A DNA stretch of 47,731 nucleotides from Pelagibacterium luteolum (lineage in GTDB: Bacteria > Pseudomonadota > Alphaproteobacteria > Rhizobiales > Devosiaceae). The DNA lies in the NCBI RefSeq assembly GCF_900100665.1, contig NZ_FNCS01000023.1, positions 1 to 47,731 on the forward strand, written 5' to 3'. Below, in pieces: positions 345-47,684 of this stretch (positions are counted from its first letter, which is position 1; every line of letters begins with the position of its first letter). The translations under genes and the position numbers were made by a program. The notes beneath the pieces are model-generated. The model saw only the letters and a list, made by a program, of their open reading frames with translations. It was not told where the DNA came from and searched no databases.

Positions 345-349
345 CCTCT
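345..349. repeat. Candidate 5-bp target-site duplication (CCTCT), left copy
   Basis: CCTCT directly abuts the IS21 right tip. The same five bases directly abut the IS21 left tip at the other end of the window (47633-47637). IS21-family insertions typically duplicate 4-8 bp of target. Confidence 0.65.
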
Positions 350-867
350 AAAAAGAGTCAACGCAGAGGCACACGTAGGGTTATGCCAGGTCCGTTCCCG
401 TAGGGCCGAGATCGCAGCCTATCTCGCACGTAGCCGCTTAAGTGATCCAGGACTAACCTATGGTCATACGGCTTTGCGAGATGAGGTCCTTCTTCGCACA
501 AATCTCCGGCGGCATTAGCAGTGCGTTCCACGGCTCCGGCGAGCAAAACCTTCAGTTGGGGCATGGATGTGCGAATCCAATGGGAGCGCCTGCATGGCTT
601 CAGGTAAGCGCTGCACCAGCTCGTCGCAGTCGAGTCCTCTTGGCAGATAACAGTGTTCTCGATCGTCCGCTGGTCGTGCGACTTGGTGCGCGCGCTGTTT
701 GCTGACGGGGCGGTGCCGCCTTATCCCGTTTCCCTTCTGGTGCGGCCACGACGGGTTGCGCCGCGGGTCGAGCAGAGAAACGACCAGGGCCATCGCGGGC
801 CTGCCATCCAATCGTCGCATCACGAACTTCTCTGATCTGGTTCCCTTGTCGTTGCCGAGACGCTGCC
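350..867. other. Gene-free stretch after the IS
   Basis: About 520 bases with only short overlapping open frames on both strands, none with a recognisable domain, and no frame preferred over the others. It follows the IS and sits downstream of the DUF1259 gene. It may be decayed DNA. I see no RNA gene or clear terminator. Confidence 0.5.
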
Positions 868-1746
868 TCAGCCGCCCGCGATGGCAATCTGGTCGAGCGC
901 CGCACGAAGGCCGTGCACGAGGTCCTGCGCGTTGCCGTTGGCCCAGAAGTGCACGAAGAACATGCGTGGCTCTTCCTCTAGCATGTGGTTGTGCAGCGGC
1001 ATGACCTGGATGCCGTTCTCCTTCAGCGCCTGGAGAACGGGCTGGACCTCGTCGGCGGTCATGACGAAGTCGCCGGTCGTCGCAGCTTGGCCCTCGCCGG
1101 TCGACTGGAAGTTGATGGCGATCGCCGACCCCATAGCGGCTGGGATCTCCATGCCGTGCATGGTGACAGGCTCTGCGCGGCGGATGCTGTATTTGTAGAT
1201 GCCCCCATCCGCCTCGCCCTCATGCCCCAAGATCTGGTCAACTGCCGCAGTATCAAAGGTGATCTGCGCAGGCTCACCACCACTAGACGCAGCTTCCAGA
1301 GGCGTCCCCGTCATCTCCAGGGCGGCTCGAATGGTCTTGGCCATCTCTACCGGATCGCCATGACCACCGATATGCATGTACATCGGAGTTGGTCCGTCTC
1401 CGAACAGGTGCTTGTGCAGGGCGGTCACCTCAACCCCGCCTTCCAGGAGGCGTTCCATCACCGGGTTGACCTCCTCCTCGGCGAGCACGAGGTCGCCCAT
1501 CAGCATGGCGCCATCCTGTGTATCCTTGAAGGCGACCCAGGTGCCAAGAGCCAGGCCGGGCTCGATCTCCACACCGTCAAGCGAAACGTGGAGATCGGAA
1601 CGAGGAAATCCGACCCGATAGACCTCCCCGGGCTGGAGGCTGCCCTCCTTACCAATCGCTTGGGCGATTGCGTCCCAATTCGACTGAGCCACCGACGGGC
1701 TCGCAAGGCACAAGGCTGCAATTGCAAGTAATGCCACTCTACGCAT
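868..1746 (-). CDS. Secreted DUF1259 (LppY/LpqO-type) protein
   Basis: 292 residues from ATG 1746, which has GAGGA about 8 bases upstream. The frame stays open further upstream, but the chosen start gives a clean signal peptide (MRRVALLAIAALCLASPSVAQ), so the protein is probably exported. It has two similar halves, each with the same pattern HxH then H 12 residues later: H111/H113/H125 and H252/H254/H266. This looks like a metal-binding site, but that is inference; the DUF1259 family has no settled biochemical function known to me. It is transcribed away from chrA with two small neighbours in between. A second DUF1259 gene lies beside the other chrA (9275-10141), which suggests a link to chromate or another metal. 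Confidence 0.85.
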   Translation of the reverse strand: MRRVALLAIAALCLASPSVAQSNWDAIAQAIGKEGSLQPGEVYRVGFPRSDLHVSLDGVEIEPGLALGTWVAFKDTQDGAMLMGDLVLAEEEVNPVMERLLEGGVEVTALHKHLFGDGPTPMYMHIGGHGDPVEMAKTIRAALEMTGTPLEAASSGGEPAQITFDTAAVDQILGHEGEADGGIYKYSIRRAEPVTMHGMEIPAAMGSAIAINFQSTGEGQAATTGDFVMTADEVQPVLQALKENGIQVMPLHNHMLEEEPRMFFVHFWANGNAQDLVHGLRAALDQIAIAGG

Positions 1747-1825
1747 TTTACGTTCCTCTTCGGGTTGGATCCACGCCGGTGCCTGTACTTGAACAGGCAA
1801 ATGCTGCGGTAAAACAGCTCGCGGG

Positions 1826-2032
1826 CTACACGGGCTTTCGCATAAAGGCCCTCGCCAACAAATAGAGACCCGCGAGTGCAATCAGAGCGAAAACGATGTT
1901 GTCGAGTGGGTCCCATATCGCCTCGAGCAGCAGGTCGAGAATGTTGACGTCGAAGACGAAAAACCCCCAGGCAAACGCTCCGAGGATCACCAAGGCAAAT
2001 GCTATCCAATCGACGCTCGTTTGGGGTCGCAT
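1826..2032 (-). CDS. Small DUF378-type membrane protein
   Basis: 68 residues from ATG 2032 (MRPQTSVDWIAFALVILGAF). A longer start at 2065 exists, but DUF378 proteins normally begin near this Met. There are two hydrophobic segments (about residues 9-28 and 38-58) separated by an acidic stretch (FDVNILDLL...IWDPLDN), typical of the DUF378/YuzA-like family of two-helix inner-membrane proteins of unknown role. It is on the same strand as the DUF1259 gene 79 bases downstream and may be co-transcribed with it. Confidence 0.75.
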   Translation of the reverse strand: MRPQTSVDWIAFALVILGAFAWGFFVFDVNILDLLLEAIWDPLDNIVFALIALAGLYLLARAFMRKPV

Positions 2033-2242
2033 GTCGGCCTCCTTCGCACAACCGGTCGCGGTCACCTAGTTGCGGCTGTCTCTCACAAAGCATGACGGTA
2101 CGCGCGTTGCGCTATCCGGTAATGCCTCTACACAACGATGGTTGCCACTCGTCACCGGCCTTCCACCGAACCCTACATCGTCCACCCCGAAAACCTGCAC
2201 CAGTCTAAGTCGTGGATCGGAGCACCTGAACATGAGGCCATT

Positions 2243-3310
2243 TCATGTAGGTCGTGTTGCCAAGCGACTGCGTTCCAAGCCCTGCTTGAACTTTGACCGC
2301 AGTCGATCAGCTACTCGGCGCGCAATCTCAACGGGTGCCTCGTTGGGGATCGGGAACACCGAGCTGGCGTTTATCTCGCCCAATACATAGCTATCAGTGC
2401 CTTCGCGGTCAGGCGGACCGAGCATGAAGTCCGCGTCCCAAATCATGGGGAGGTCTCGCCGAGAAATATCCAACGAGGCGGTCAACTGCGGGATCCACTC
2501 GTCTTCCATAAGGCGGCGCAGGCGCTGGAAGCGCTCGTCGGCATTGGAAGTATAGAGGCGAGGGCCGACCTCCGCCCGCGTCACCAGGTCATCGACCAAG
2601 GCTTTGACCTTCTGGTGGCCGAAGCCAGCGCAGCGATCGCCGACCATGTAGCAGCGCACCACACCGTCGCTCAGGCGGGCCTGGAAAGGCTGGTCGATCA
2701 CAGGACCGTCCTCGAAGTAGTCGGCACACCGATTCAGGAACTCCTCAAGTGGCAGTTGCTCTGCCTTGTCTTGGGTCGCATCTAGCACGCGAACGCCGTG
2801 ACCCACTACTCTCTCGACTTTCCAAACGCCTTGGCCGCCATTGCCACGGCTGCGCTTGATCACGCGCGGACCGCCGGTCAGCCGCTCAGGCAATTCGGCC
2901 CGCATCACCTCGGCGGTTCGGTAGAGGGCGGTGTCGCACCCCCAACTCATCTTCCGTGTATGATAGAGCACCTCCTTGGTCCCCATCTTGAGGATAACGT
3001 CGGGATGGGCACTCACCCAGACACCGCGCGCCGCGACTTCGCGCAGCAGCGCGTCGAGCCGGGCGCGATTGCGCCCATCATGTATCGGATTGACCCAGAC
3101 GAGAACGCCATCGAGCGTCTCCAGCTCTGCTCGCACAGCGTCGATGACGTCATCTTCGTAGACCAAGGGCACAGCTTCGACCCCGGCGCCAGCCAGCGCC
3201 GCGAAGATCGCCTTGAAACGGCAGGTTTCTGGTGTAGCTCCACGGCGTTCCAGTTCATCACCGCGCCAAAGGACGGCTATGCGTCCCAAGTGGGCTGTCA
3301 ACTCTGACAT
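2243..3310 (-). CDS. Cj0069-family ATP-grasp-like protein
   Basis: 355 residues from ATG 3310 (MSELTAHLGRIAVLWRG), with AAAGGA just upstream. The N-terminal part resembles the pre-ATP-grasp region ('VWVNPIHDGRNRARLD'). The middle has 'RVIKRSRGNGGQGVWKVE', the flexible nucleotide-binding loop of ATP-grasp ligases, and the C-terminal part has 'DADFMLG' and 'LGEINASSVFPIPN', which carry acidic and Asn residues of the Mg-ATP site. It probably joins a carboxylate to a nucleophile; the substrate is unknown. ATP-grasp enzymes recur in tellurite (Ter)-type stress loci, and TerB, a TerC relic and a VWA relic all lie within 11 kb. Same strand as DUF378 and DUF1259. Confidence 0.75.
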   Translation of the reverse strand: MSELTAHLGRIAVLWRGDELERRGATPETCRFKAIFAALAGAGVEAVPLVYEDDVIDAVRAELETLDGVLVWVNPIHDGRNRARLDALLREVAARGVWVSAHPDVILKMGTKEVLYHTRKMSWGCDTALYRTAEVMRAELPERLTGGPRVIKRSRGNGGQGVWKVERVVGHGVRVLDATQDKAEQLPLEEFLNRCADYFEDGPVIDQPFQARLSDGVVRCYMVGDRCAGFGHQKVKALVDDLVTRAEVGPRLYTSNADERFQRLRRLMEDEWIPQLTASLDISRRDLPMIWDADFMLGPPDREGTDSYVLGEINASSVFPIPNEAPVEIARRVADRLRSKFKQGLERSRLATRPT

Positions 3311-3507
3311 TGAAAGATCCTTTCAACTCATTGCAACTAGGTGACCTGTGCGACAAAAGCGGTAACGCCGAGCACCGTCGCTCTAGTGTTCCGATCCTCT
3401 GCCTCAGGGCATGGCTACCAGTGACGATGAGGAGCGGCTCGCTCGTGGAGCAGCCATCGTCGACGATTCTCTACGCATATTTTCAGACGAGCCGGGGCTA
3501 AGGTCGC

Positions 3508-3670
3508 CTCCTGCGTCTCCGCATTCGAGGGCAGGGCATAGATGGCGTTCTTCACGGCGACGGCCCCGATCGCCTGCAAGCGACGCCAAGGTGTCACGCG
3601 GAAATAGGCCAGCTTGGCCGGAAGCTGGTGAATTAGGAGGAGAATGTCGGCGGGATTGAGTCATGGCCAT
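3508..3670 (-). pseudogene. chrB: Truncated, frameshifted chrB (N-terminal stub)
   Basis: About 48 codons match the N terminus of the intact ChrB at 11616-12596: 'LLLIHQLPAKLAYFRV' against 'LLLIHQLPSKPAYLRV', then 'WRRLQAIGAVAVKNAIYALP' against 'WRRLQGIGAVAVKSTVYALP'. Similarity stops at about 3508 and the rest of the gene is absent. A good ribosome site (TTGGAGG) precedes ATG 3670, but that ATG is out of frame with the ChrB reading, so there is a frameshift after about four codons. It stands divergent to chrA and shares the promoter region with it. It is probably a relic of an old chrB that once controlled this chrA. Confidence 0.85.
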
Positions 3671-3681
3671 TACACCTCCAA

Positions 3682-3718
3682 TGTTGCTACTGTATCTTTT
3701 ATTCCATATAAAGCAACA
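3682..3718. promoter_or_regulatory. Divergent promoter pair inside an inverted repeat (candidate ChrB-type operator)
   Basis: Perfect 7-bp arms TGTTGCT (3682-3688) and AGCAACA (3712-3718). On the plus strand TTGCTA (3684-3689), a 17-base spacer and TATAAA (3707-3712) form a near-consensus promoter for chrA. On the minus strand TTGCTT and TACAGT at 16 bases spacing point to the chrB stub. The arms overlap both -35 boxes, which fits a repressor operator. ChrB as the binding protein is inference. Confidence 0.65.
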
Positions 3719-3732
3719 AACGTATCAACTGA

Positions 3733-3747
3733 AGGCCGTGAGGGCCT
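3733..3747 (+). promoter_or_regulatory. Hairpin in the chrA 5' leader
   Basis: AGGCC (3733-3737), loop GTGAG, GGCCT (3743-3747), in a leader of about 87 bases between the predicted start site (~3719) and ATG 3806. A second G/C-rich pairing (CGGAGG with CCACC) may follow at 3760-3785. It could be a structured RNA leader or chance. Confidence 0.35.
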
Positions 3748-3805
3748 CCTATGCAGAACCGGAGGTTGTCATCTCTGTCCACCCTCAAAAGGTCCAGCTT
3801 CGATA

Positions 3806-5071
3806 ATGACTCAGACGCCTGACCCTTCCGGTGGCCATGTTGCCGATCAGCGAGAGCCAACTGTGCCTACGCTATCGCAATGGCAGATTTTCGTGCGTTT
3901 TTTGCGCTTTGGCCTTCTCGCATGGGGTGGACCTGTCGCGCAGATTGCTATGATCCGGCGAGAACTCGTTGATGAGGAGCGCTGGATTTCCAGCAGCCGG
4001 TTCAACCGCCTTCTTGCCGTCTATCAGGTGCTTCCGGGGCCTGAGGCGCACGAATTATGCGTCCATATCGGCATGCTTCCAGGTGGGCGCATGGGCGGCT
4101 TCCTTGCGGGGCTCGGCTTCATGCTGCCGGGCTTCCTTCTGATGTTCGCCCTATCGTGGCTCTACTTCACGATCGACATCACGCAATCGGCTCTAGGTCC
4201 GATATTTCTCGGCATTCAAGTTGCGGTCATTGCACTGATCGTGCGTGCGGTCCACAGAATTGGAGAGCACGTACTCCTCGACAAATGGCTCTGGGGCATT
4301 GGGATCGTCAGCGCTTTCGCAGCGTTTCTCGGCGCGAGCTTCTGGATCACGCTTCCGGCAGCAGGGTTGGTCTATGCCTTCGCCTTGCGAAGACAGCATG
4401 CACTTGCGGCCGTGACCCTGGTAGCCGCCACCGTGCTCGCTGTCCTGGTCGGGCCAGAGAGTTCAACAGGTCTGCTCGAAAGCGCCGCGCAGGGCACAGC
4501 ACTCTCCAACGGGCCGATCGCGCAGGACGCATCGCTGGTGGCCCTGTTTTTCTCTGGCCTCAAGGCCGGTCTCCTGACCTTTGGGGGAGCCTACACTGTC
4601 ATTCCGTTCCTGCGTGACGACGCAGTGGGGAACGGCTGGATGACGGACGCCCAATTCCTTGACGGTCTCGCTCTGTCCGGCATCCTGCCCGCACCGCTCA
4701 TCATCTTCTCCACCTTCGTCGGCTATTTTGGGGGCGGTCCGCTCGGCGCCATCGCTATGACGGCCGGGATTTTTCTACCAGCCTTTGGCTTTTCGCTGCT
4801 CTTCCATGAGCGTCTGGAGAGCGTGGTCGAAAACAAGACCCTGCACAGCTTCCTGGAGGGCGTATCCGCAGGTGTCGTCGGTCTGATCGCCGCGACCACG
4901 GTCGAACTCGCGCTTGTCGTCATCGAGCGGCTACCGTCCGTGCTTCTCGGCGGGGTGATCTTCGCGCTCGCTCTGGCCGTCCTTTATCTCTGGAAGTCGA
5001 AGGTGAACGTCGTCCTGGCGGTTCTCGGTGCCGGCTTTCTGGGCTGGCTCAGCTCCGGCTTCCTTGGATGA
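3806..5071 (+). CDS. chrA: Chromate transporter ChrA (copy 1, two-domain)
   Basis: 421 residues from ATG 3806 (MTQTPDPSGG); the frame runs further upstream, but that part lies in the promoter and leader. It is a full-length CHR protein with two homologous halves: 'FGLLAWGGPVAQIAMIRREL' with 'YQVLPGPEAHELCVHIG' in the first, and 'GLLTFGGAYTVIPFLR' with 'ALSGILPAPLIIFSTFVGYF' in the second. These are the conserved GGP/LPGP and FGGAY/PGP-like signatures; here the second reads LPAP. About ten membrane segments. It exports chromate from the cytoplasm. It stands alone on the plus strand behind its own strong promoter, with only a chrB stub beside it, so control may come from the intact ChrB 7 kb away. 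It is clearly diverged from copy 2. Confidence 0.95.
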   Translation: MTQTPDPSGGHVADQREPTVPTLSQWQIFVRFLRFGLLAWGGPVAQIAMIRRELVDEERWISSSRFNRLLAVYQVLPGPEAHELCVHIGMLPGGRMGGFLAGLGFMLPGFLLMFALSWLYFTIDITQSALGPIFLGIQVAVIALIVRAVHRIGEHVLLDKWLWGIGIVSAFAAFLGASFWITLPAAGLVYAFALRRQHALAAVTLVAATVLAVLVGPESSTGLLESAAQGTALSNGPIAQDASLVALFFSGLKAGLLTFGGAYTVIPFLRDDAVGNGWMTDAQFLDGLALSGILPAPLIIFSTFVGYFGGGPLGAIAMTAGIFLPAFGFSLLFHERLESVVENKTLHSFLEGVSAGVVGLIAATTVELALVVIERLPSVLLGGVIFALALAVLYLWKSKVNVVLAVLGAGFLGWLSSGFLG

Positions 5072-9274: not shown

Positions 9275-10141
9275 TTATGGCGAACAGCACGCGTCATCGG
9301 ACTGGACCTGTTTCTGGGTTGCCAAGGCACGGCCCAAAATAGTGGCCAGGTCAGTGGCTTTGCCGATGCCCCAATAGTGGAGGAAGATGATCCGGGGTTC
9401 CTCAAAAAACATGTGGTTGTGGACGGCGACCACCTCGATCCCGCCGGCGCGAAGTTCCCGGATAATCGGAGCGACTTCGAGTTCGAGCATCGCGAAGTCG
9501 CCGCACACCGCGGCCCGCTCCTCAGTGCCTTGGAATGCCGCCCAGGTGTTGTATCCCATCACCGAGTTGATTTCCAAACCGCCGCAGCGGCTGCATCTGA
9601 CGGGAACCTCCGGGCGCCCCAGCGTGAATTTGAAGACCCCGTCCTTGAGTTCGCCCGGGGCGCCGATGATGTCTTCCAACTGCCTGGTATCCAGTTGGTT
9701 GGGGACCTCCTTGATGGCAGGGTTGACGGGACGAGCCTGGCGAACCGTTTCGACTGCATCCAGTATTTTGCGAACACCTTGTCCCAATGTGGCTTCGTCG
9801 GCCGTAGCTTCGATGTGCATGAACAGCACCTCGGGCTGCGCGCGGATGAAGTGGTTGTGCAGCGCGGTCACATAGAATCCCCCCTCGATTGCTGCGGAAA
9901 CGGCAACACCGACTTCGTCTTCCATCAGAACGATGTCGCCCATCACCGTCGTCTGCTCAGTGCCTTTGCGGAACGCTGCCCAAGTGGTCAGGCCCATAAA
10001 GGGAACTATCTCAAAGCCATCCACAGTCACCTTTACATCGCTGCGCGGCACCGACATTTTGAGTACGTCGCCGGTCATTGTTCCCGCGATACCTGCAGCC
10101 GCCTCAAGGTTTTTTTGATCCAACATAGTGCCATCAGTCAT
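9275..10141 (-). CDS. Cytoplasmic DUF1259 protein next to chrA
   Basis: 288 residues from ATG 10141, without a signal peptide, unlike the exported DUF1259 protein at 868-1746. It has the same duplicated design with HxH...H motifs: H95/H97/H109 ('ALHNHF', then 'LFMHI') and again in the second half ('AVHNHMFFEEPR', then 'FLHYWG') with identical spacing. A CxxC pair ('RCSRCGG') sits in the middle and CC near the C terminus, which adds possible metal ligands. It is 41 bases downstream of chrA copy 2 and co-directional, so very likely in the chrB-chrA-DUF1259 transcript. A role in sensing, binding or delivering a metal or oxyanion is inference. Confidence 0.87.
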   Translation of the reverse strand: MTDGTMLDQKNLEAAAGIAGTMTGDVLKMSVPRSDVKVTVDGFEIVPFMGLTTWAAFRKGTEQTTVMGDIVLMEDEVGVAVSAAIEGGFYVTALHNHFIRAQPEVLFMHIEATADEATLGQGVRKILDAVETVRQARPVNPAIKEVPNQLDTRQLEDIIGAPGELKDGVFKFTLGRPEVPVRCSRCGGLEINSVMGYNTWAAFQGTEERAAVCGDFAMLELEVAPIIRELRAGGIEVVAVHNHMFFEEPRIIFLHYWGIGKATDLATILGRALATQKQVQSDDACCSP

Positions 10142-10182
10142 AGCCAGTCTCCTTCCGAAGGGATGTCACTCACGCAGGCTGC

Positions 10183-11598
10183 CTAAAGTGTTCCCGAAAC
10201 GAGCCCAGAGAGCAAACCTGCGCCCGAACAGGCGGCAAGCACCGGCAGCATGCCGACCTTGAAGCGGAACACGGCGATCAGCGCGCCGAGGGTGAGCACG
10301 AGCGAGGCCACGTTGACCGAGCTCAGGACCGGCACATCGACGCTCATGCCGAAGCCGCTCACCTCGATCAACTCGCCGAAGAGCACGTGCAACCCGAACC
10401 ACACCGCGAGATTGAGGATGACGCCGACGACGGCCGCTGTGATCGTCGCCAGCGCCGCCGACAGCGCCCGGTTGCTGCGCAGCGCCTCGACAAAGGGCGC
10501 GCCGAGAAAGATCCACAGGAAGCAGGGCGTAAAGGTCACCCAGGTGGTGAGCAGGCCACCGAGCGTGGCCGCCAGCAACGGATCGAGCGATCCGGGCGCG
10601 CGGAAGGCGCCCATGAAGCCCACGAACTGCGTGACCATGATGAGCGGCCCAGGCGTGGTCTCGGCCATTCCGAGCCCGTCCAGCATCTCTCCGGGCTGGA
10701 GCCAGTGATAGGTCTCCACGGCCTGCTGCGCGACATAGGCAAGAACGGCATAGGCGCCGCCGAAGGTCACCACGGCCATCTTGGAGAAGAAAACGGCAAT
10801 GTCGGCAAAGACATTGCCGGGACCGAGCGCGGCAAGAAGGGCCGCAACCGGTGCGAGCCACAGAATGAGGAAAACACCCGCGATCTTCAGCGCCCAGGCG
10901 AGCGAGGGCCGCGCATGAGCGGGGATCGTCTCCCCGAGGACACTGTCCGCGTCGGCAACCTGCTTGTCACCCACCTTGCCGTGCCCGTTGGCGGCAAGGA
11001 AGGGCGCAAGGCCCGCGCGCCCGCCGGCAAAGCCGATGATGGCCGCGGTCAGGATGATCAGGGGAAACGGCACCTGGAAGAAGAAGATGGCGATGAAGGC
11101 GGCGGCGGCCAGCGCCACCATGACGTTGTTCTTGAGGGCGCGCTTGCCGACCCGCACGACGGCCTCGAGCACGATGGCGAGCACCGCCGCCTTCAGCCCG
11201 AAGAACAGCGCCTCTACGGCACCGACATTGCCGAAGAGCGCATAGATCCAGCTCAGTGCCATGATAGCGACAACGCCCGGTAGCACGAACAGCGTGCCGG
11301 CCACGAGCCCGCCCTTGGTTTTGTGGAGGAGCCAGCCGATATAGACGGCGAGCTGTTGCGCCTCCGGTCCCGGCAGGAGCATGCAATAGTTGAGCGCATG
11401 CAGGAAGCGGTTCTCGCCGATCCAGCGCTTCTCCTCGACGATGATCCGGTGCATCACAGCGATCTGCCCGGCGGGGCCGCCGAAGGAAAGCGCCGCTACT
11501 CGAGCCCAGACGCGCACGGCCTCTCCGAAAGGGATGCCGTGGTCGGGCGCTTCGTCGCGCCCGATGGATTGTGTGTCGTTGCTTGCGACCTTGTTCAT
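10183..11598 (-). CDS. chrA: Chromate transporter ChrA (copy 2, two-domain)
   Basis: 471 residues from ATG 11598, preceded by AGGGA. A GTG at 11619 that overlaps the chrB stop is an alternative start giving seven more residues. Both CHR halves are present: 'AALSFGGPAGQIAVMHR' and 'NYCMLLPGPEAQQLAVYIGW' in the first, 'AVVTFGGAYAVLAYVAQQ' and 'GMAETTPGPLIMVTQFVGF' in the second, with a hydrophilic linker near 220. It is a membrane chromate efflux protein. Directly downstream of chrB, the classic chrBA order, and followed by a DUF1259 gene. It keeps the canonical PGP in both halves, whereas copy 1 has LPAP in the second. Confidence 0.96.
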   Translation of the reverse strand: MNKVASNDTQSIGRDEAPDHGIPFGEAVRVWARVAALSFGGPAGQIAVMHRIIVEEKRWIGENRFLHALNYCMLLPGPEAQQLAVYIGWLLHKTKGGLVAGTLFVLPGVVAIMALSWIYALFGNVGAVEALFFGLKAAVLAIVLEAVVRVGKRALKNNVMVALAAAAFIAIFFFQVPFPLIILTAAIIGFAGGRAGLAPFLAANGHGKVGDKQVADADSVLGETIPAHARPSLAWALKIAGVFLILWLAPVAALLAALGPGNVFADIAVFFSKMAVVTFGGAYAVLAYVAQQAVETYHWLQPGEMLDGLGMAETTPGPLIMVTQFVGFMGAFRAPGSLDPLLAATLGGLLTTWVTFTPCFLWIFLGAPFVEALRSNRALSAALATITAAVVGVILNLAVWFGLHVLFGELIEVSGFGMSVDVPVLSSVNVASLVLTLGALIAVFRFKVGMLPVLAACSGAGLLSGLVSGTL

Positions 11599-11615
11599 CG
11601 ATCCATCCCTGTGCG

Positions 11616-16000: not shown

Positions 16001-16127
16001 GGTAGGCGGGTCAGGCTACTACAGCAATAAGGCCCACTTTGAATCCTTGGCCATGCCGTTTGGCAACTGACCTCTGTCCATGGAACGAGAGTACTTACCT
16101 CGCGCGGCCGATAGTGGCCCTGTTGAG

Positions 16128-29492: not shown

Positions 29493-29493
29493 A

Positions 29494-32548: not shown

Positions 32549-32601
32549 TCTGAATCACATTCGCCCGCCAATTAACAGGTCCTGAGCCCAGCGCGAATTC
32601 T

Positions 32602-34104: not shown

Positions 34105-34227
34105 CGATCCTCCTGGCGCATCTCTGAACGCCGGCAGGATAGGGACCAAGGATGAATTGTTGAAATTGATTGTTCTCGTCTCTACGATTGCGATGCTCAA
34201 TCTTCATCCAGATCCCTGGTAACATGC

Positions 34228-37148: not shown

Positions 37149-37910
37149 ATGCAACTCGAAATTGCGACTACCCGAATTGAGGACGAAACACCCGGAGAGG
37201 GACACTTGCCGAGCAGAGCCTTCGACCAGTTGCGAGATGCACTAGAAACGGCCCAGGGGATGGCGCCGGTCAAAGCCGCGGTGAAGGAATTCGCCGGCCA
37301 ACTGGGATTTGACTGGTTCGCCTATCTCTCGGTCTGTGGACCGGAGATCGACACGTTTTCGACGTACCCGCGCGCATGGCAAGGCCACTATATCAACAAG
37401 AAATACGCGACGATCGATCCCGTCGTGCAGGAAGCCCGCCGCTCTGAGCGCTGCTTTGCGTGGTCCGAACGCGACCTTGCACGAGCATTGTCGCCGGACC
37501 AGGTGCGCTTCCTTGGAGAAGCCGGGGATCATGGCATCGCATCGGGGATATCTGTGCCGGTGTCGGCCGGATTCGGCAGGACAGTATTGTTCACTCTCGC
37601 GTCCTCGAACCGGTGTGACAATTGCCTGGTGGAATGCCCCTTCCTTGCCGCTTCGATTGCATCGCACGTGGATGTCTATGCGCGGCGCTGGATGCTTGAG
37701 CCAATGCCTGCTGTCGCCGTCAAGCTAAGCCCTAGAGAGAGGCTCTGCCTGAGCTGGATGGCTAAAGGCAAACGCATGTCCGAAATCGCGCAAATCGTCG
37801 GAACCAAGGTCCGGACGGTCGAGTATCACCTGCAAAATGCTCGGCGGAAGCTGGATGCCACCAATGTCACTCACGCCGTGGCGCTTGCGGTGCGTCAACA
37901 GTTGATCTGA
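37149..37910 (+). CDS. luxR: LuxR-family quorum-sensing regulator (AHL-binding type)
   Basis: 253 residues. The N-terminal autoinducer domain keeps the ligand residues with TraR spacing: W77, Y81, D90, P91 and W105. The C-terminal LuxR helix-turn-helix reads 'KLSPRERLCLSWMAKGKRMS' then 'EIAQIVGTKVRTVEYHLQNA'. It should dimerise on binding an acyl-homoserine lactone and control promoters. Its likely partner luxI, divergent, is truncated, so it now works as a LuxR solo responding to other producers or not at all. In Rhizobiaceae such pairs often control conjugation and repABC copy number. Confidence 0.93.
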   Translation: MQLEIATTRIEDETPGEGHLPSRAFDQLRDALETAQGMAPVKAAVKEFAGQLGFDWFAYLSVCGPEIDTFSTYPRAWQGHYINKKYATIDPVVQEARRSERCFAWSERDLARALSPDQVRFLGEAGDHGIASGISVPVSAGFGRTVLFTLASSNRCDNCLVECPFLAASIASHVDVYARRWMLEPMPAVAVKLSPRERLCLSWMAKGKRMSEIAQIVGTKVRTVEYHLQNARRKLDATNVTHAVALAVRQQLI

Positions 37911-38053: not shown

Positions 38054-38166
38054 ATCGGCTGCCGATATCGGCAAGGGAGATCGGCAACTAATATCGGCAA
38101 TTGTGCTGACTTGTTGTCTCTAATGCCTTACATTGCAATCCATTGAGGCACGATAGAGATCGGCAA
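38054..38166 (+). repeat. 13-bp-spaced iterons upstream of fic
   Basis: ATCGGCAA at 38067-38074, 38080-38087 and 38093-38100, with a related ATCGGCTG at 38054-38061: an exact 13-bp period. A further ATCGGCAA is at 38159-38166, just before the fic ATG. The first units form a perfect 14-bp palindrome TGCCGATATCGGCA (38060-38073). Probably binding sites for a regulator of fic. Confidence 0.75.
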
Positions 38167-38169
38167 AGA

Positions 38170-39399
38170 ATGCTTGAAACCCCTGCCCGGATCGAGCCGC
38201 TGTTTTTTGACGACGCGGTGCCGACCGTTCTGGCCGATCTTGCAATCGAGCTGCAGAAGGCCGCCGATGAACTCGGCCGAGGCTTGCATCCTGAGTCCGC
38301 TGACGAATTGGCCGATCTCGTACGAGTCATGAATTCGTACTATTCGAATTTGATCGAAGGCCACAACACCCGACCTCGAGATATCGAGAGCGCACTGGCT
38401 GGCGCCGAGATAGATCCCCAACGTCGTCCCCTCGCCCTGGAGGCGAAGGCCCATGTTGAAGTTCAGAGGATGATTGACGGCCTCGGGTTGCGCGGCGAGC
38501 TGCCGAGCCCGACTTCGATCGATTTCATTCGGTGGGTTCATCGCGCCTTCTATGACGAGATGCCCGAAGAGTTCCGGTTCATCGACAAACCTGATGGCGC
38601 CAAGGCTGAGATTGTTCCCGGCGTGTTCAGGATGTCCACCGAACATGATGTCGCTGTCGGCCGTCATCAGCCACCGTCCTCTGACAGGGTGGTGGCTTTT
38701 ATGGAGTATTTCCAGAAGCGGTTTGCCATGGCCGAAAAGCAGGCGAGCCTGCGGATCATCGCGATTGCGTCAGCTCATCAACGCCTCAACTACATCCACC
38801 CGTTTCCAGACGGTAACGGCCGCGTCAGTCGCCTGATGTCTCACGCCATGGCGCTCAAGGCTGGTATTGGCGGTAATGGCCTGTGGTCGATATCTCGTGG
38901 CCTCGCTCGTGGCCTGAAAGATCGTGGCGAATACAAGCGCATGATGGATCACGCCGACAGTCCCAGACAAGGCGATCGTGATGGACGAGGAAATCTTTCG
39001 GAATCGGCACTCAAGGATTTCGTCGAATGGTTTCTTACGGTCGCGCTGGACCAAGTACGGTTCTCGACTGCAATGTTCGACCTCGGACGGCTCGATGCTC
39101 GCTACCGCGCCCTAATAAAAGATGTCGTCGACGACAGACGAGCACCTGATCTGGTGGCGGCCGTATTGCGGCACGGCAGGTTGCCCCGTGGCGAGGCCAA
39201 TTTCGTGCTGAAAACATCCGAGCGCACGGCCCGGAACACGCTGTCGGATCTCGTCGAGCGCGGGTTTCTGAAATCGGACACTCCGAAGGCACCGGTGCGC
39301 ATTGCCTTCCCCCTCGATTTCAGGGAACGGCTGTTTCCGAATCTCTTCACCGACGCCGAAGTCAATGTCCCGGAACCGCCTTCACCGTCTTTCAAGTGA
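38170..39399 (+). CDS. Fic-domain AMPylase with autoinhibitory motif and C-terminal winged helix
   Basis: 409 residues from ATG 38170; a TTG at 38143 would add nine, but the last iteron overlaps that region. Fic motif HPFPDGNGR starting at H210, the catalytic loop that transfers AMP (or another nucleotide part) to target proteins. Upstream, 'YYSNLIEGHN' carries the S-x-x-x-E-G inhibitory motif (S59, E63, G64), so it is a class II Fic that is held inactive in cis. The C-terminal winged helix ('FVLKTSERTARNTLSDLVER') may let it bind its own iterons. Lies between luxR and repA; target unknown. Confidence 0.93.
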   Translation: MLETPARIEPLFFDDAVPTVLADLAIELQKAADELGRGLHPESADELADLVRVMNSYYSNLIEGHNTRPRDIESALAGAEIDPQRRPLALEAKAHVEVQRMIDGLGLRGELPSPTSIDFIRWVHRAFYDEMPEEFRFIDKPDGAKAEIVPGVFRMSTEHDVAVGRHQPPSSDRVVAFMEYFQKRFAMAEKQASLRIIAIASAHQRLNYIHPFPDGNGRVSRLMSHAMALKAGIGGNGLWSISRGLARGLKDRGEYKRMMDHADSPRQGDRDGRGNLSESALKDFVEWFLTVALDQVRFSTAMFDLGRLDARYRALIKDVVDDRRAPDLVAAVLRHGRLPRGEANFVLKTSERTARNTLSDLVERGFLKSDTPKAPVRIAFPLDFRERLFPNLFTDAEVNVPEPPSPSFK

Positions 39400-39801: not shown

Positions 39802-39828
39802 GGCGCCAGATTGGCCGAAAGGTCGAAT

Positions 39829-41052
39829 ATGGCGCTATTTTCTCGTTCGGGGGACAAAGCGGAGATGGCATTTCTCCCAAGTTTTGAGTTTGACGACAAG
39901 ATCCTTGCCCAGGGTGCCGAGATCTCGCGCAAGCTCGACCAATTGCGCGTCGAGAAGTTTCCGACCGAGGGGCAGAAGACCCTTCGGCGGTTCTCGATGG
40001 CCGAAGTCGCCCACTATCTTGGGATCAGTCCGAACAATCTGAAGCGCCTCCATCTTGAAAAGAAAGGTCCTGAGCCTTTCGTCGGTGCCGGCGGGCGGCG
40101 CTTTTACGCGGCCGAGCAGATGACCGAGCTTCGGGACTATCTCGATAAGCACGGGCGATCGGATTCCAAGAAGTATGTGCCCTACCGCAAACCTGGCGAG
40201 AAGCTGCAGGTCATTGCGGTCGTCAACTTCAAGGGTGGATCGGGAAAGACCACCACCACGGCGCACCTCGCGCAGCATCTGGCGCTCACCGGTCACAGGG
40301 TCCTGACGGTGGATCTCGATCCGCAGGCTTCGCTTTCAGCCCTCCATGGCTTCCAGCCGGAGCTCGACAAGAACCCCTCGCTCTACGACGCGATCCGGTA
40401 CGACAACCCCGCCCCGGCCGAAGATGTCATCCGCAAGACGAACTTCCCCTTGCTCGATATCATCCCGGCGAACCTAGAGCTGCAGGAATATGAGTACGAG
40501 ACGCCGCTTGCCATGCAGTCTCCGTCTCAGGAAGGAAAGCGGTTCTTCACGAGGGTCGCCCGGGCATTGGATTCGGTCAGTGAGCGCTACGACGTCGTGG
40601 TCGTCGATTGCCCTCCGCAGCTTGGCTATCTGACGCTGTCGGCACTGTCGGCCGCCACCTCGGTTCTGATCACCGTCCACCCGCAGATGCTGGACCTGAT
40701 GTCCATGAGTCAGTTTCTGCTGATGCTGGGCAATATCATGAAGTCCATCAAGAGTGCTGGCGCGACGGTCCAGCTGGACTGGCTGCGCTATCTCATCACC
40801 CGATACGAGCCCACGGACATTCCCCAGGCGCAGATGGTCGGCTTCATGCAGTCGATGCTTGCCGAGGAAATCCTGAAGAACCCGATGCTCAAATCCACAG
40901 CGATTTCTGACGCCGGCCTCACCAAGCAGACGCTCTATGAGGTCGAGCGATCGAACTTCAATCGCGATACCTATGATCGGGCGATCGACAGCATGGATGC
41001 CGTGAACTTCGAGATTCAGGGACTGATCCACCAGGCATGGGGGCGGTTATGA
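39829..41052 (+). CDS. repA: RepA, ParA-type partition ATPase of the repABC operon
   Basis: 407 residues from ATG 39829 (a TTG at 39811 lies too close to the predicted start site). N-terminal MerR-like helix-turn-helix ('FSMAEVAHYLGISPNNLKRL', about 55-74) for operator binding. Walker A KGGSGKTT at 135-142, 'VLTVDLDPQASLSALHGF' and 'YDVVVVDCPPQLGYLTLSAL'. RepA drives plasmid segregation with RepB and represses the operon. Usual length for the family. Confidence 0.97.
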   Translation: MALFSRSGDKAEMAFLPSFEFDDKILAQGAEISRKLDQLRVEKFPTEGQKTLRRFSMAEVAHYLGISPNNLKRLHLEKKGPEPFVGAGGRRFYAAEQMTELRDYLDKHGRSDSKKYVPYRKPGEKLQVIAVVNFKGGSGKTTTTAHLAQHLALTGHRVLTVDLDPQASLSALHGFQPELDKNPSLYDAIRYDNPAPAEDVIRKTNFPLLDIIPANLELQEYEYETPLAMQSPSQEGKRFFTRVARALDSVSERYDVVVVDCPPQLGYLTLSALSAATSVLITVHPQMLDLMSMSQFLLMLGNIMKSIKSAGATVQLDWLRYLITRYEPTDIPQAQMVGFMQSMLAEEILKNPMLKSTAISDAGLTKQTLYEVERSNFNRDTYDRAIDSMDAVNFEIQGLIHQAWGRL

Positions 41053-41126: not shown

Positions 41127-42137
41127 ATGGCGCGGAAAAATCCCTTTGCCAGCATCATGGACAACCGCGACGCTCCCGCTGAGCGCCCAGTTGCACGAGA
41201 CTACACCTTCAAGGGGGCATCACGCTCGCTCATAAGCTCGATCGACGAAATGGCGGCCCAGGCAGGCAAGCTGCTCGAGGGTGAGACGATAGTCGAGGTT
41301 GACCCCGACCTGGTGGACCAATCTTTCGCCAACGACCGGCTCAACGTCGATCAGGAAGATTACGAGGCCGACTACGCTCAGGTGTTGGAGTCGATCCGCA
41401 GTTCCGGCCAGAACTCCCCGGCACTCCTTCGCCCTCACCCGCAGCGGCCCGGCCGCTACATGCTGGTCTTCGGTCGCCTCCGCTGGCGCGCCGCAAAAGA
41501 GCTTGGCCTCAAGCTTCGCGCTGTCATCAAGGATATCTCCGAGCGCGATCATGTGATCGCCCAGGGACAGGAAAACAACGCGCGAGCGAACACGTCCTTC
41601 ATCGAGAAAGCACTGTTTGCCGCCGACATCGTTCAGCGGAAATTCGACGAGGACAACGCCACGGCCCTCGCCGCGATCGGTGTCGATCGGCCGACGCTTT
41701 CAAAGATGCTCTCTGTCGCCTCGATGCCCAAGGATCTGCTCGAAGCGATCGGCCGCGCGAAGGCTGTCGGTCGTGATCGCTGGTATGAGCTCAAGCTCCT
41801 CCTCGACAAGCCGGGCAATGTCGACACTGCCTTGGCTCTGGCATCGAGTTCCGATTTTCATGGGATGCCAAGCGAAGCGCGGTTCGATGCGATCGTCGCG
41901 AAGCTGAAGGCATCCAAGCCGCGCCGCCGTGCCGCGCAGGCGCCATCCAAACGCAGCTGGGCGCCGTCTGATGGGCGTGTCGCCGCGGAGATGGTGGCCA
42001 GTGGCAAGAAATTCACCATCGCCCTCAAGGCGAAGGGGACCGACGCAGCAGCGTTCGGTGACTACCTCTCGGAAAATCTCAGCGAGTTGTATGAGGCTTT
42101 CCGTCGGGAAAAACGAGCAACCACGAACGGAGATTGA
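41127..42137 (+). CDS. repB: RepB, ParB-type partition protein of the repABC operon
   Basis: 336 residues. ParB N-terminal domain with 'LRPHPQRPGRYMLVFGRLRW' and 'GQENNARANTSFIEKALFAA' (box II), a helix-turn-helix around 'AIGVDRPTLSKMLSVASMPK', and a C-terminal dimer region. It binds parS and works with RepA in segregation and in repression of the operon. 74 bases after repA. Confidence 0.96.
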   Translation: MARKNPFASIMDNRDAPAERPVARDYTFKGASRSLISSIDEMAAQAGKLLEGETIVEVDPDLVDQSFANDRLNVDQEDYEADYAQVLESIRSSGQNSPALLRPHPQRPGRYMLVFGRLRWRAAKELGLKLRAVIKDISERDHVIAQGQENNARANTSFIEKALFAADIVQRKFDEDNATALAAIGVDRPTLSKMLSVASMPKDLLEAIGRAKAVGRDRWYELKLLLDKPGNVDTALALASSSDFHGMPSEARFDAIVAKLKASKPRRRAAQAPSKRSWAPSDGRVAAEMVASGKKFTIALKAKGTDAAAFGDYLSENLSELYEAFRREKRATTNGD

Positions 42138-42144
42138 GCGCAAA

Positions 42145-42197
42145 AGAAAAAGGCCCCGAAACGGCAATTCCGGAAGACCTTCTCTTTAAGTTTGGCG
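42145..42197 (-). ncRNA. Antisense RNA (ctRNA) controlling repC
   Basis: The repB-repC gap encodes a short minus-strand RNA of about 50 bases. It begins a few bases after the -10 box at 42204-42209 and ends in a hairpin (42152-42179, GGTC-CCGGAA paired with TTTCGG-GGCC, two-base bulge) followed by TTTTT (42147-42151 on the minus strand). In repABC plasmids this RNA base-pairs with the repC leader and sets copy number and incompatibility. Confidence 0.82.
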
Positions 42198-42203
42198 ACT
42201 GAG

Positions 42204-42232
42204 AGAATCCCACTTCCGCGAATCATAGTCAA
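42204..42232 (-). promoter_or_regulatory. ctRNA promoter
   Basis: On the minus strand TTGACT (42232-42227), exactly 17 bases, GATTCT (42209-42204). The strong -35 and perfect spacing fit the constitutive promoters known for repABC ctRNAs. Confidence 0.75.
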
Positions 42233-42302
42233 GACCATTCAGGTCGGTTTGAGCGTCGATTCGGCGAGCAGGTTTCTTTTGCCTAGCGATAGGTGAAGGA
42301 CA

Positions 42303-43613
42303 ATGCAGACGCATACCCCAACGACGCCCTTTGGGCGGCGAACGATGTCGCTTGGCATGATGGCAAGTCAGGCCGTGGCGAAGGCAGTCCCGGAAGGGGC
42401 GCAGGTCCAGAAATGGAAAGTGTTCCAGACGATCCGGGAAGCGCGCGAGCTGATCGGCGCTACGGACCGCGCACTCGCCATTCTCAACGCCCTGCTCTCG
42501 TTTCATCCGGAAACGGAGCTCACAGGCGACGGCGAACTGATTGTCTGGCCGTCGAACGAGCAGCTCATGGCCCGTGCAAACGGAATGCCGGCGACGACGC
42601 TGCGGCGCCACCTGGCCGTCCTGGTCGACTGCGGGCTGATTATCCGCAGAGATAGTCCGAACGGCAAGCGCTTCGCCCGCAAGGGCAGGGGGGGACAGGT
42701 CGAACAGGCCTATGGGTTCGACCTGTCCCCGATCGTTGCCCGGGCTGAGGAATTCAAGGAGCTGGCGGACACCGTCCGGGCCGAAAAGAACGCCTTTCGG
42801 ATCGCCAAGGAGCGTCTCACGCTCCTGCGCCGCGATATCGTCAAGCTAATCGAGACCGGCATTGAGGAGAACGTTCCAGGCAATTGGGGCAGGGTCCACC
42901 AGACCTATCAGGCCATCGTCGGCCGGTTACCGCGCTCAGCGCCGAGGCAACTCATCGAGGATATCTGCTGCGATCTCCACGGCCTCTACACGGAGATACT
43001 CGAGGTACTGGAATCATTTGTAAAAACACAGAATTCGGACGCCAATGAGTCCCATTCTGGTCGCCACATACAGAATTCAAACCCAGACTCCATATTTGAA
43101 TCTAAAGAGGGCTCTGGAAAAGAAGAGGAAGCGGGCGGCAGCGCCGCGGAAACCGACAACGTACGGAGCTTGCCGAAGCGGGAATTGCCTTTGGGCATTG
43201 TGCTGGATGCCTGCCCGAACCTGCGAGAATTGGCCCAAGGCGGCGAAATCCGTCACTGGCGCGACTTTCTGGCCGCGGCGGAACTGGCGCGGCCGATGCT
43301 GGCGATCAGCCCCAGCGCGTGGCGAGACGCCTGCGAGGTCATGGGCGAACAGCATGCGGCGATCACGCTCGCTGCGATCTACCAGCGATCAGACCAGATC
43401 AACAGCGCTGGCGGCTATCTACGCAGCCTGACCGACAGGGCAAGGGACGGCAAATTCTCGACCTGGCCAATGATCATGGCGCTGCTGCGCGCCAAGCTGG
43501 ACGCCGACAAATCGGCAGGGAAGGCTGGCCACGAACCGCCAAGCGGCGGCGGGGAAGGGCGGCTTGAGGTCTCGGAAGCCCTTCTGCGGTCGCTGAACAA
43601 GCCCAGATCGTGA
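42303..43613 (+). CDS. repC: RepC replication initiator
   Basis: 436 residues from ATG 42303. N-terminal winged-helix part: 'RTMSLGMMASQAVAKAVPEG', 'DRALAILNALLSFHPETEL' and 'GMPATTLRRHLAVLVDCGLI'. The C-terminal part reads 'LGIVLDACPNLRELAQGGEI' and 'ACEVMGEQHAAITLAAIYQR'. RepC is the only protein needed to start replication in this family and acts mostly in cis at an origin inside its own gene. Expression is held down by the ctRNA at 42145-42197. The reading frame is complete, so the plasmid should be able to replicate. Confidence 0.97.
   Translation: MQTHTPTTPFGRRTMSLGMMASQAVAKAVPEGAQVQKWKVFQTIREARELIGATDRALAILNALLSFHPETELTGDGELIVWPSNEQLMARANGMPATTLRRHLAVLVDCGLIIRRDSPNGKRFARKGRGGQVEQAYGFDLSPIVARAEEFKELADTVRAEKNAFRIAKERLTLLRRDIVKLIETGIEENVPGNWGRVHQTYQAIVGRLPRSAPRQLIEDICCDLHGLYTEILEVLESFVKTQNSDANESHSGRHIQNSNPDSIFESKEGSGKEEEAGGSAAETDNVRSLPKRELPLGIVLDACPNLRELAQGGEIRHWRDFLAAAELARPMLAISPSAWRDACEVMGEQHAAITLAAIYQRSDQINSAGGYLRSLTDRARDGKFSTWPMIMALLRAKLDADKSAGKAGHEPPSGGGEGRLEVSEALLRSLNKPRS
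43010..43110. other. AT-rich stretch inside repC, probable oriV
   Basis: A clear AT-rich island in GC-rich DNA, between the N- and C-terminal parts of RepC. ACAGAATTC occurs at 43028-43036 and 43070-43078, 42 bp apart (about four helical turns). The replication origin of repABC plasmids lies in such a stretch of repC. Confidence 0.65.
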
Positions 43614-43972: not shown

Positions 43973-44896
43973 TCAGGCCGCCTCAAGCAAGCCGCTGCGC
44001 TTTGCCCTGTCGATGAGGTTCTTGACGGACGATGGTGCCCATTTCGTACCGCCACGGGGCGTACGCTCATGAAGGCGCTCGAGCTGGTTGGCTATTTCGC
44101 GCAAGGTCAGCTCCGGATTGGAGGAATGGATGCCCGCCACCAGGGTCATCAGACGATCCTCAGCTGGCCGAGGCGGCGACTTCCTCAGAAGCGACTTGTC
44201 GGCCATTCCCTCGCTGACAATCCACTTCACCGCGCGCCGTAAACGCTCAGGAGTCCAATCGAGGCCACGTTGCCTGAGAACGCGGGAGATATCGTCCCAT
44301 GTGTGGTCCGGTCGCATGCGCCGCACAATGGGAAGCCACTGGTTCGCGGATGACTGGAGACGCGCTCCATAGGCTGCCTTTTGCGCGGCCGTCATTTTGG
44401 CCAGCGCGTCCGGCCGACGTTCGCGGATCCCTGGATTGCCCGGCATCCGGCCTTTTGCCCTGGCGGCTTTGATGCCCGCCTTGGTCCGCTCGGAGTTGAG
44501 AGCCCGCTCCAGCTGGGCCACGGCGCCAAGAACCTGCAGGGAAAACATGCCTTGCGGCGTCGTGGTGTCGATCGGGTCGCTGAGCGACCGGAAATGCGCA
44601 CCTTTTGCCGTCAGGTCCTCGATGACATCGAGCAGATGGCTTACCGAGCGCGCCAGACGGTCGAGCCGAACGACGACAAGCGTGTCGCCAGCGTCGATCT
44701 CGCGGACAATCTTGGCAAGGGCAGGGCGGGCTCGTGAGGCCCCGGAGCCGTGCTCCCGGACGATTGTCTCACATCCGGCGGACCGCAACTCCATCTCCTG
44801 GGCTTCTGTAGCCTGCTCGTCTGTCGAGACGCGCGCATAGCCGAGTTGCCGGCCCTGTGGTCGACGGGAGGAGTGATTGTGCGGTGTTTTGGCCAT
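43973..44896 (-). CDS. Serine recombinase (resolvase/invertase family)
   Basis: 307 residues from ATG 44896. The catalytic domain begins 'LGYARVSTDEQATEAQEM' with the nucleophile Ser24, and contains 'VVVRLDRLARSVSHLLDVI' with the active-site Arg residues. A longer C-terminal part than in Tn3 resolvases (about 110 extra residues, with 'WDDISRVLRQRGLDWTPERL' and a last helix-turn-helix-like 'LTLREIANQLERL'). Likely resolves plasmid multimers or cointegrates. A candidate res site lies 25 bases upstream. No transposase accompanies it. Confidence 0.93.
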   Translation of the reverse strand: MAKTPHNHSSRRPQGRQLGYARVSTDEQATEAQEMELRSAGCETIVREHGSGASRARPALAKIVREIDAGDTLVVVRLDRLARSVSHLLDVIEDLTAKGAHFRSLSDPIDTTTPQGMFSLQVLGAVAQLERALNSERTKAGIKAARAKGRMPGNPGIRERRPDALAKMTAAQKAAYGARLQSSANQWLPIVRRMRPDHTWDDISRVLRQRGLDWTPERLRRAVKWIVSEGMADKSLLRKSPPRPAEDRLMTLVAGIHSSNPELTLREIANQLERLHERTPRGGTKWAPSSVKNLIDRAKRSGLLEAA

Positions 44897-46289: not shown

Positions 46290-46340
46290 AAACGCGCGCC
46301 AACGGACTCACTGAACCATGGCATCTGCAGCGAGCAGTGG

Positions 46341-46370
46341 TTGACGGCGGCGCTAGCGTATCTATATAAT
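46341..46370 (+). promoter_or_regulatory. Strong promoter of the toxin-antitoxin operon
   Basis: TTGACG (46341-46346), 18-base spacer, perfect TATAAT (46365-46370), 25 bases before the antitoxin ATG at 46396. One of the best sigma-70-type promoters in the window. Antitoxin binding across it is likely but not shown. Confidence 0.75.
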
Positions 46371-46395
46371 CCCTAAGACAACCAGCGAGGTTATC

Positions 46396-47001
46396 ATGGT
46401 TCGCACCGCGCCAAACCCGAGCAGCACTCGTTCTGATTCCCTGCAGGCGGCCTTTCTTCGGCGCGCAACATCTGCGCTTGAGCGCATGGCGGCCACCGCG
46501 TCGCCGAAGACACTGTCCGACGCTTTGGCTGCGCCAACCGATGCGGGTTCGCTTGCATGGCTCCTCAGCCGGTCCGAGGTTGTCGGTCCAGCCGTCATCG
46601 AGCTCGACCCGCTGGTCCCTGCCTTGGCGAGGAACGTCGAACACCGCAAGCTCCTGCTTGAGCGCGCCGGCGGCACTTTGTCGGCAGAGGATACGGGTCG
46701 GCTGCTCGGCATCTCGCGCCAGGCGGTCGACAAGCGCCGGCGAGCCGGAGCGTTGCTTGCTGTTCGCGAGGGGAGCGACTGGCGTTATCCCGCCTGTCAA
46801 TTCGAAGAGACGGACGTCGTCGCCGGTATCTCGGATGTCATTCGAGCGTACGCTTCGGCTGGGCCGTGGGTGGCGCTCGATTTCCTGCTCGCGCCCGACT
46901 CGGCGCTTGGAGGACGATCGGCCCTTGAGACGCTGAAGTCCGGCGATCGGGCCGCGGTCCTGCGCCTCCTGCGCAGTGAGGCGCAGGACGGGTTTGCATG
47001 A
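46396..47001 (+). CDS. Xre/MbcA-type antitoxin of a RES toxin
   Basis: 201 residues. A helix-turn-helix near 95-120 ('AEDTGRLLGISRQAVDKRRR'), then the toxin-binding DUF2384/MbcA-like C-terminal part ('AGPWVALDFLLAPDSALGGR', 'SALETLKSGDRAAVLRLLRS'). It neutralises the RES toxin and represses the operon. Overlaps the toxin start by four bases (ATGA). Strong promoter directly upstream. Confidence 0.9.
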   Translation: MVRTAPNPSSTRSDSLQAAFLRRATSALERMAATASPKTLSDALAAPTDAGSLAWLLSRSEVVGPAVIELDPLVPALARNVEHRKLLLERAGGTLSAEDTGRLLGISRQAVDKRRRAGALLAVREGSDWRYPACQFEETDVVAGISDVIRAYASAGPWVALDFLLAPDSALGGRSALETLKSGDRAAVLRLLRSEAQDGFA

Positions 47002-47684
47002 CGCCGAGGAAGCGGACCGCACCCCGCGGTCCCTCCGGTCTGGCGCCTCCTCCTCCCGAATGGCTCGCTGACATATCGCTGCCGATCGACGAGATTCAGG
47101 CCGGACAAGTGTTGCACCGTGTCCACCGTTCGTCGCTCGCCCCGATCTTCTTCGGCCCCGGCTCCAACGTGCCGCCCACGAACCGCTTTGACAGCGCCAG
47201 CGGACGGTTCGGAGTCCTCTATGCCGGTCTCACCCTTCGCAGCGCCCTGGCCGAAACCCTCGTGCGCAGTCCGCAACGTCTCACGGTGGCCATGACCGAT
47301 ATCATTGGGCGCTCCGTATTCGGGCTTGTCTCTGACAGACCTATGCGGATTGTGCGCCTGTATGGATCGGGACTGCAGACGGTCGGGACGGACAACTCGA
47401 TTTCGACCGGACCCTATGAGCCTTGCGGCCTTTGGTCAGACGCCCTCTGGGATCACTCAGACCGTCCGGATGGATTAGCCTACCAGTCGCGCCATGACTC
47501 CACCGAGATCTGTTTCGCGATCTTTGAAAGAGCCGATCTTCGCCTTAAAGCTGAGGGAACCCACGCGTTGTCGAGCATGCTTAGAGACGTGGCCGCAGTG
47601 CTCGACAGCTATGGCAAATCCGTGTCCCCACCCCTCTTGTCGGGCGAAATGAGAAACTGCCCCCCAAACGAAACGAAGAACTGA
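46998..47684 (+). CDS. RES-domain toxin, C terminus changed by IS21 insertion
   Basis: 228 residues as read. RES-domain hallmarks: 'VLHRVHRSSLAPIFFGPGS' (first Arg), 'NRFDSASGRFGVLYAGLTLR' and 'SALAETLVRSP' (Glu), then 'QSRHDSTEICFAIFE' (Ser). RES toxins (MbcT type) break down or ADP-ribosylate with NAD+. The last 14 residues ('LSGEMRNCPPNETKN' region) are encoded by the IS21 left end, which starts at 47638. Joining 47637 to the bases after the left IS tip (350 on) would give a stop codon TAA immediately after ...SVSPPL, so the natural protein is probably about 213 residues. Confidence 0.9.
   Translation: MTPRKRTAPRGPSGLAPPPPEWLADISLPIDEIQAGQVLHRVHRSSLAPIFFGPGSNVPPTNRFDSASGRFGVLYAGLTLRSALAETLVRSPQRLTVAMTDIIGRSVFGLVSDRPMRIVRLYGSGLQTVGTDNSISTGPYEPCGLWSDALWDHSDRPDGLAYQSRHDSTEICFAIFERADLRLKAEGTHALSSMLRDVAAVLDSYGKSVSPPLLSGEMRNCPPNETKN
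47633..47637. repeat. Candidate 5-bp target-site duplication (CCTCT), right copy
   Basis: Matches 345-349 and directly abuts the IS21 left tip. Confidence 0.65.

What the first reader, a model, noticed from the sequence alone, without database searches (positions are those of the whole stretch)
345..47637. Window appears to be a circular repABC plasmid opened inside one IS21 copy
IS21 right-end sequence stops at 344 and IS21 left-end sequence starts at 47638, both in the same orientation. The bases outside the tips are the same, CCTCT, as after a single insertion in a circle. Two separate insertions or a composite transposon would not give matching inner flanks. The window also has one full replicon.
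Basis: partly seen in the sequence, partly recalled or inferred. Interest (0 to 1): 0.72.

Follow-up and report, generated by a model that had tools for sequence, protein, structure and literature searches.

The report
Ordinary repABC plasmid, cut at IS21
The window is most likely an ordinary circular bacterial plasmid that an assembler cut open inside a repeated jumping gene, although sequence alone cannot exclude that it is inserted in a larger molecule through that same jumping gene.

Summary
The window is the whole contig C18 of a 50-contig draft genome, starting with 344 bp of an IS21-family (ISSme2-like) right end and finishing with 94 bp of the left end, same orientation, with CCTCT outside both tips. 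Relatives of this IS duplicate 5 bp in 6 of 6 copies with both tips found, of 8 fetched. Readable genome sequence has three left and two right ends; of six pairings only C18-C18 (CCTCT) and C8-C29 (GGAGC) match. A chance 5-bp match is about 1 in 640. A complete repABC unit lies inside. One replicon of about 49.5 kb opened inside one IS copy is the best reading (0.82). Reads, depth or PCR are needed to separate these. No relative with both flanks was found. Cargo: chromate, sulfate and central-metabolism genes. A new member of a well-known kind; low interest.

The parts
1..344 (+). Right end of an IS21-family element (ISSme2-like), 3' part of istB plus terminal region, ending ...GCTTGACA
   Evidence: 100% identical to C29:16-359; 90.7% to S. 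medicae copies annotated istB, ISSme2 family
345..349 (.). CCTCT, right copy of the 5-bp target duplication
868..5071 (.). DUF1259 gene (868-1881 -), DUF6815 gene (2243-3310 -), chromate transporter (3644-5071 +)
   Evidence: Pfam
9275..12596 (-). Second DUF1259 gene (9275-10141), second chromate transporter (10183-11619), ChrB (11616-12596)
   Evidence: Pfam
14684..25418 (-). Metabolic cargo: MgtC/DUF4010, DUF6671, GTPase/APS kinase (CysNC-like), IlvD/Edd dehydratase, amidohydrolase, pyruvate kinase, DUF533
   Evidence: Pfam
28169..35079 (.). Sbt_1 transporter, GGDEF protein, Mur ligase-like protein, isocitrate dehydrogenase, LysR regulator
   Evidence: Pfam
37149..37910 (+). TraR/LuxR-type autoinducer-binding regulator
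   Evidence: Pfam; NCBIfam TraR 147.6 bits, under the cut-off of 250
38143..39399 (+). Fic family protein
   Evidence: Pfam
39811..41052 (+). repA
   Evidence: TIGR03453, over cut-off
41127..42137 (+). repB
   Evidence: TIGR03454, over cut-off
42140..42305 (.). Possible ctRNA (42140-42183 -) and S-element (42242-42305 +) between repB and repC
   Evidence: Rfam RF00489 and RF00490, both below gathering score
42303..43613 (+). repC
   Evidence: NF040974 RepABC_RepC, over cut-off
43973..44896 (-). Resolvase/recombinase
   Evidence: PF00239
45180..46289 (+). RHE_PE00001 family protein
   Evidence: NF040876
46396..47001 (+). Probable partner (antitoxin) of the RES gene; the M. amorphae counterpart is annotated as a helix-turn-helix protein
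   Evidence: no Pfam or NCBIfam match; homologue annotation
46998..47637 (+). RES-domain gene up to the IS; the reading frame as it stands runs on into the IS to 47684
   Evidence: PF08808 for 46998-47684, no NCBIfam match for 46998-47637; relatives
47633..47637 (.). CCTCT, left copy of the 5-bp target duplication
47638..47731 (+). Left end of the same IS21-family element, starting TGTCGGGC
   Evidence: 100% identical to C3:49692-49785 and C8:335-242

Best explanation
Contig C18 is one circular repABC replicon of about 49.5 kb (47,293 bp outside the IS plus about 2.2 kb of IS, the length taken from relatives). A single ISSme2-like IS21 element inserted at the 3' end of a RES-domain gene of a probable Xre/RES pair and duplicated CCTCT. 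The same IS has ends at no fewer than two other sites of the genome, so an assembler could not bridge it and opened the circle there. Replication and partition run by repABC. Shown: the tips, the duplications, IS ends on other contigs and the gene content. Inferred: circularity, an intact IS core in between, short-read assembly, and autonomous replication.
For: Tips and CCTCT on both sides. Of six left-right pairings only C18-C18 and C8-C29 match over 5 bp. Chance of a 5-bp match 0.00156. In relatives of this IS, 6 of 6 copies with both tips found have a 5-bp duplication and no other length from 4 to 8; in the other 2 of 8 fetched no left tip was recognised. PMC10122671 gives 5-bp direct repeats as observed for its IS21-family element (passages). 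repA, repB and repC score over cut-off. The backbone 36898-47636 is collinear at 96% with contig C89 of G021, and 36898-44971 in two pieces (92.8% and 95.5%) with Aminobacter pMET2, a circular complete plasmid. repC genes lie on three contigs, so several repABC replicons are expected here.
Against: No overlap joins the ends. The IS core is not in readable contigs; nine small contigs read wholly as N. No relative with both flanks was found: 345-2240 has no match in G021, the one family genome of 136 with a long match to the left flank; 345-900 has only matches of 25-52 bases outside its own genome in 397 order genomes; the gene next to the right flank is at most 55% identical to 46 loci found. 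Fusion with another molecule predicts the same flanks.
Confidence: 0.82

Rival explanations
1. The plasmid is fused to another molecule through the IS. Homologous recombination between IS copies, or IS21 cointegrase, has placed C18 between two IS copies in the C8/C29 locus (or at the C3 copy), so the order is C8-IS-C18-IS-C29.
For: It predicts inner CCTCT/CCTCT and outer GGAGC/GGAGC, which is exactly what is seen. IS ends on other contigs are identical over the compared 94-344 bases. An IS21 cointegrase acting on tandem IS21 is described in PMC10122671, which cites a paper whose title speaks of replicon fusion (passages). repABC plasmids of Rhizobium etli fuse by site-specific or RecA recombination (PMC3224233, passages).
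Against: It needs an extra event. A simple insertion at C8/C29 explains the GGAGC pair without it: C8-like and C29-like sequences lie side by side in counterparts from same-genus genomes and on C31 of this genome. A whole replicon is present. None of this excludes fusion.
Confidence: 0.14
2. C18 is one arc of a larger molecule bounded by two independent IS21 insertions whose flanks agree by chance.
For: IS ends lie on three other contigs; the right partner of the C3 copy is not in readable contigs.
Against: A chance 5-bp match is about 0.0016, and each of the two right ends found has exactly one matching left end.
Confidence: 0.02
3. The contig is misassembled, for example joined inside at the 14.2/35.0 kb direct repeat.
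For: A direct repeat of 425 aligned nt at 79.5% identity lies at 14212-14622 and 34990-35408.
Against: At 79.5% identity the repeat is too diverged to confuse ordinary assembly (general knowledge). The backbone 36898-47636 is collinear with an independent genome; the rest of the window has only scattered matches there.
Confidence: 0.02

Closest known systems
   Same: pMET2: TraR-like, Fic, repABC and recombinase genes in the same order, 95.7% DNA identity over the 4.6-kb repABC query. G021: 96% over 36898-47636, including the RES gene, and 88% over 16203-23048
   Different: pMET2 has a trb operon and AHL synthase beside traR; none was seen among 50 of 145 listed window ORFs scanned. Most of the cargo differs.
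ISSme2 (IS21 family)
   Same: 88-91% identity over the right 344 bp to listed copies annotated as ISSme2 family; tips TGTCGGGC and GCTTGACA; 5-bp target duplication
   Different: Only 344 bp and 94 bp are present in the window; istA and most of the element lie outside it

Membership tests
repABC plasmid | repA, repB, repC in that order on one strand | tested here: met
   39811-43613 +, all three over NCBIfam cut-offs
repABC plasmid | Counter-transcribed RNA between repB and repC | tested here: inconclusive
   RF00489 32.1 bits (gathering 50) and RF00490 42.3 bits (gathering 47) at the expected place; neither reaches gathering
repABC plasmid | parS-like palindrome | tested here: inconclusive
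Variant sites were not searched.
repABC plasmid | Free circular replicon | not testable with these tools
   No reads or depth; target duplication only
IS21 family (ISSme2-like) | 5'-TG...CA-3' tips with short imperfect inverted repeats | tested here: met
   TGTCGGGC at the left tip, GCTTGACA at the right tip; inverted likeness judged by eye
IS21 family (ISSme2-like) | Target duplication of constant length | tested here: met
   5 bp at C18 and at C8/C29; 5 bp in 6 of 6 relatives with both tips found, of 8 fetched
IS21 family (ISSme2-like) | istA and istB in an element of about 2.2 kb | not testable with these tools
   Core not in readable contigs; six relatives with both tips are 2190-2218 bp

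The most novel reading that the evidence does not exclude
The plasmid alternates between a free circle and a form fused to the C8/C29 locus through identical IS21 copies, so that a chromate-resistance replicon is captured and released by its own IS.
Probability: 0.08. Interest if true: 0.35.

Novelty: new member of a known kind. Interest (0 to 1): 0.12.

Why it matters
It turns a loose contig into a probable closed replicon of about 49.5 kb, and it shows that IS target duplications can pair contig ends across a repeat (C18 with itself, C8 with C29). It also shows the limit of that reasoning: a matching inner duplication does not separate a free plasmid from one fused through the IS. Biologically it is a common alphaproteobacterial plasmid type with metal and metabolic cargo.

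Tried and rejected
Rejected: two independent insertions and a composite transposon, because the inner flanks match and only two of six pairings match.

Led nowhere: an exact 25-base pattern from the right flank had 0 matches in genome contigs. The gene next to the right flank (868-1881) has only distant relatives (46 loci confirmed of 68 stretches, at most 55% identity). 345-2240 matched 8 of 136 family genomes, one being its own, the rest in part only, and G021 not among them; in plasmids it matched 60 records, and none of the 20 listed begins before window 861. The left flank 46390-47637 matched 8 of 136 family genomes, one its own and only G021 over full length. 345-900 matched 5 of 397 order genomes, one its own and four over 25-52 bases. 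Downstream of the RES gene, G021 and M. amorphae show no match to window 345 onward. The right partner of the C3 copy was not found. GC skew gave no clear origin or terminus; G+C of the contig stretches compared (57-64%) did not set C18 (62%) apart. No tRNA in the window. Five paper searches (listings only, and passages of three papers) showed nothing on this plasmid; none searched a strain or plasmid name. I did not name the host genus.

Full report
Observation. The window is the complete contig C18 of a draft genome of 4,296,818 bases in 50 contigs. Positions 1-344 are the right end of an IS21-family element and 47638-47731 its left end, in the same orientation. The bases just outside are CCTCT at both ends. 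The ends share no exact overlap of 10-299 bases, so the circle is not shown by overlap.

Is the match more than chance? Random 5-bp flanks in this window agree at 0.00156. I fetched eight relatives of the element: seven of the 277 records and the one record. In six of the eight both tips were found; these six measure 2190-2218 bp and have a 5-bp duplication and no other length from 4 to 8. In the other two (Sinorhizobium medicae) no left tip was recognised. Passages of PMC10122671 also speak of 5-bp repeats. Against a fixed length for the whole family, a table in PMC3281130 gives three Paracoccus IS21-family elements with 8, 8 and 7, which I take to be the duplication length though the column heading was not in the passages seen; so 5 bp belongs to this element, not to the family.

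Other copies in the genome. Readable sequence holds three left ends (C18, C3, C8) and two right ends (C18, C29). Of six pairings, C18-C18 (CCTCT) and C8-C29 (GGAGC) match and the other four do not. The C3 copy (AGAGT) has no right partner in readable contigs; nine contigs under 3 kb read wholly as N, as do the first 5,000 bases of C14. C8 and C29 are plausibly neighbours split by the IS. Of six same-genus loci compared, three gave matches to both sides: in two (from G123 and G119) the aligned parts are 69 bases apart, and in the third (G128) a short 34-base match to C29 lies 192 bases from the C8 match, about the distance expected; the other three loci matched C29 alone. On C31 of this same genome the two like sequences are 33 bases apart. 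These counterparts are only 66-74% identical over the longer matches and may be paralogues.

What the molecule is. It carries repA, repB and repC over cut-off, a resolvase, an RHE_PE00001 gene and a RES-domain gene with its probable partner. The genome has two more repC genes, on C34 and C47. The stretch 36898-47636 is 96% identical and collinear with contig C89 of G021, which also matches 16203-23048 at 88% in a different arrangement. The repABC stretch is 95.7% identical to three Aminobacter plasmids. No relaxase or type IV secretion family appeared among 50 ORFs given to Pfam, of 145 listed; two relatives carry trb genes near repABC. The cargo includes two chromate transporters, ChrB, two DUF1259 genes, a CysNC-like protein, dehydratase, pyruvate kinase and isocitrate dehydrogenase genes.

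Where the IS sits. It lies at the 3' end of the RES gene. In G021 the match ends 6 bases before the end of the corresponding ORF, and in M. amorphae 10 bases before the end of the annotated gene. Downstream DNA in both relatives does not resemble the window's right flank, so neither gives an independent view of the uninterrupted site. The flanks were compared apart.

Interpretation. One circular replicon opened inside one IS is the best reading (0.82). If a circle carrying CCTCT-IS-CCTCT fuses with a molecule carrying GGAGC-IS-GGAGC, the product has CCTCT on both inner sides and GGAGC on both outer sides. The contig ends fit this too (0.14). Fusion of repABC plasmids by recombination is known in Rhizobium etli (PMC3224233, passages), and an IS21 cointegrase is described (PMC10122671, passages). 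No held data give depth or linkage, so this stays open. The odds are judgements, not computed.

Verdict. An ordinary new member of the repABC plasmids, cut at an ISSme2-like element. Interest is low.

Noticed in passing
14212-14622 and 34990-35408: Direct repeat of 425 aligned nt at 79.5% identity, with a short related piece at 16124-16179; a small reading frame with like endings seems to lie in both copies.
   Followed up: partly
13844-13896 (-): terC RNA (RF03067, over gathering score) upstream of a TerB-domain ORF at 13296-13772 -.
   Followed up: no
32602-34200 (-): Isocitrate dehydrogenase on the plasmid; the one other match to PF18324 in the readable genome is on C39.
   Followed up: partly
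C3:49692-50033 of G000: A third IS left end with flank AGAGT and no right partner in readable contigs.
   Followed up: partly
C34 and C47 of G000: Two further repC genes, so the strain may have three repABC replicons.
   Followed up: no
345-900: Stretch with no match over 52 bases outside its own genome in 397 order genomes; none of 20 listed of 60 plasmid matches to 345-2240 begins before 861.
   Followed up: partly
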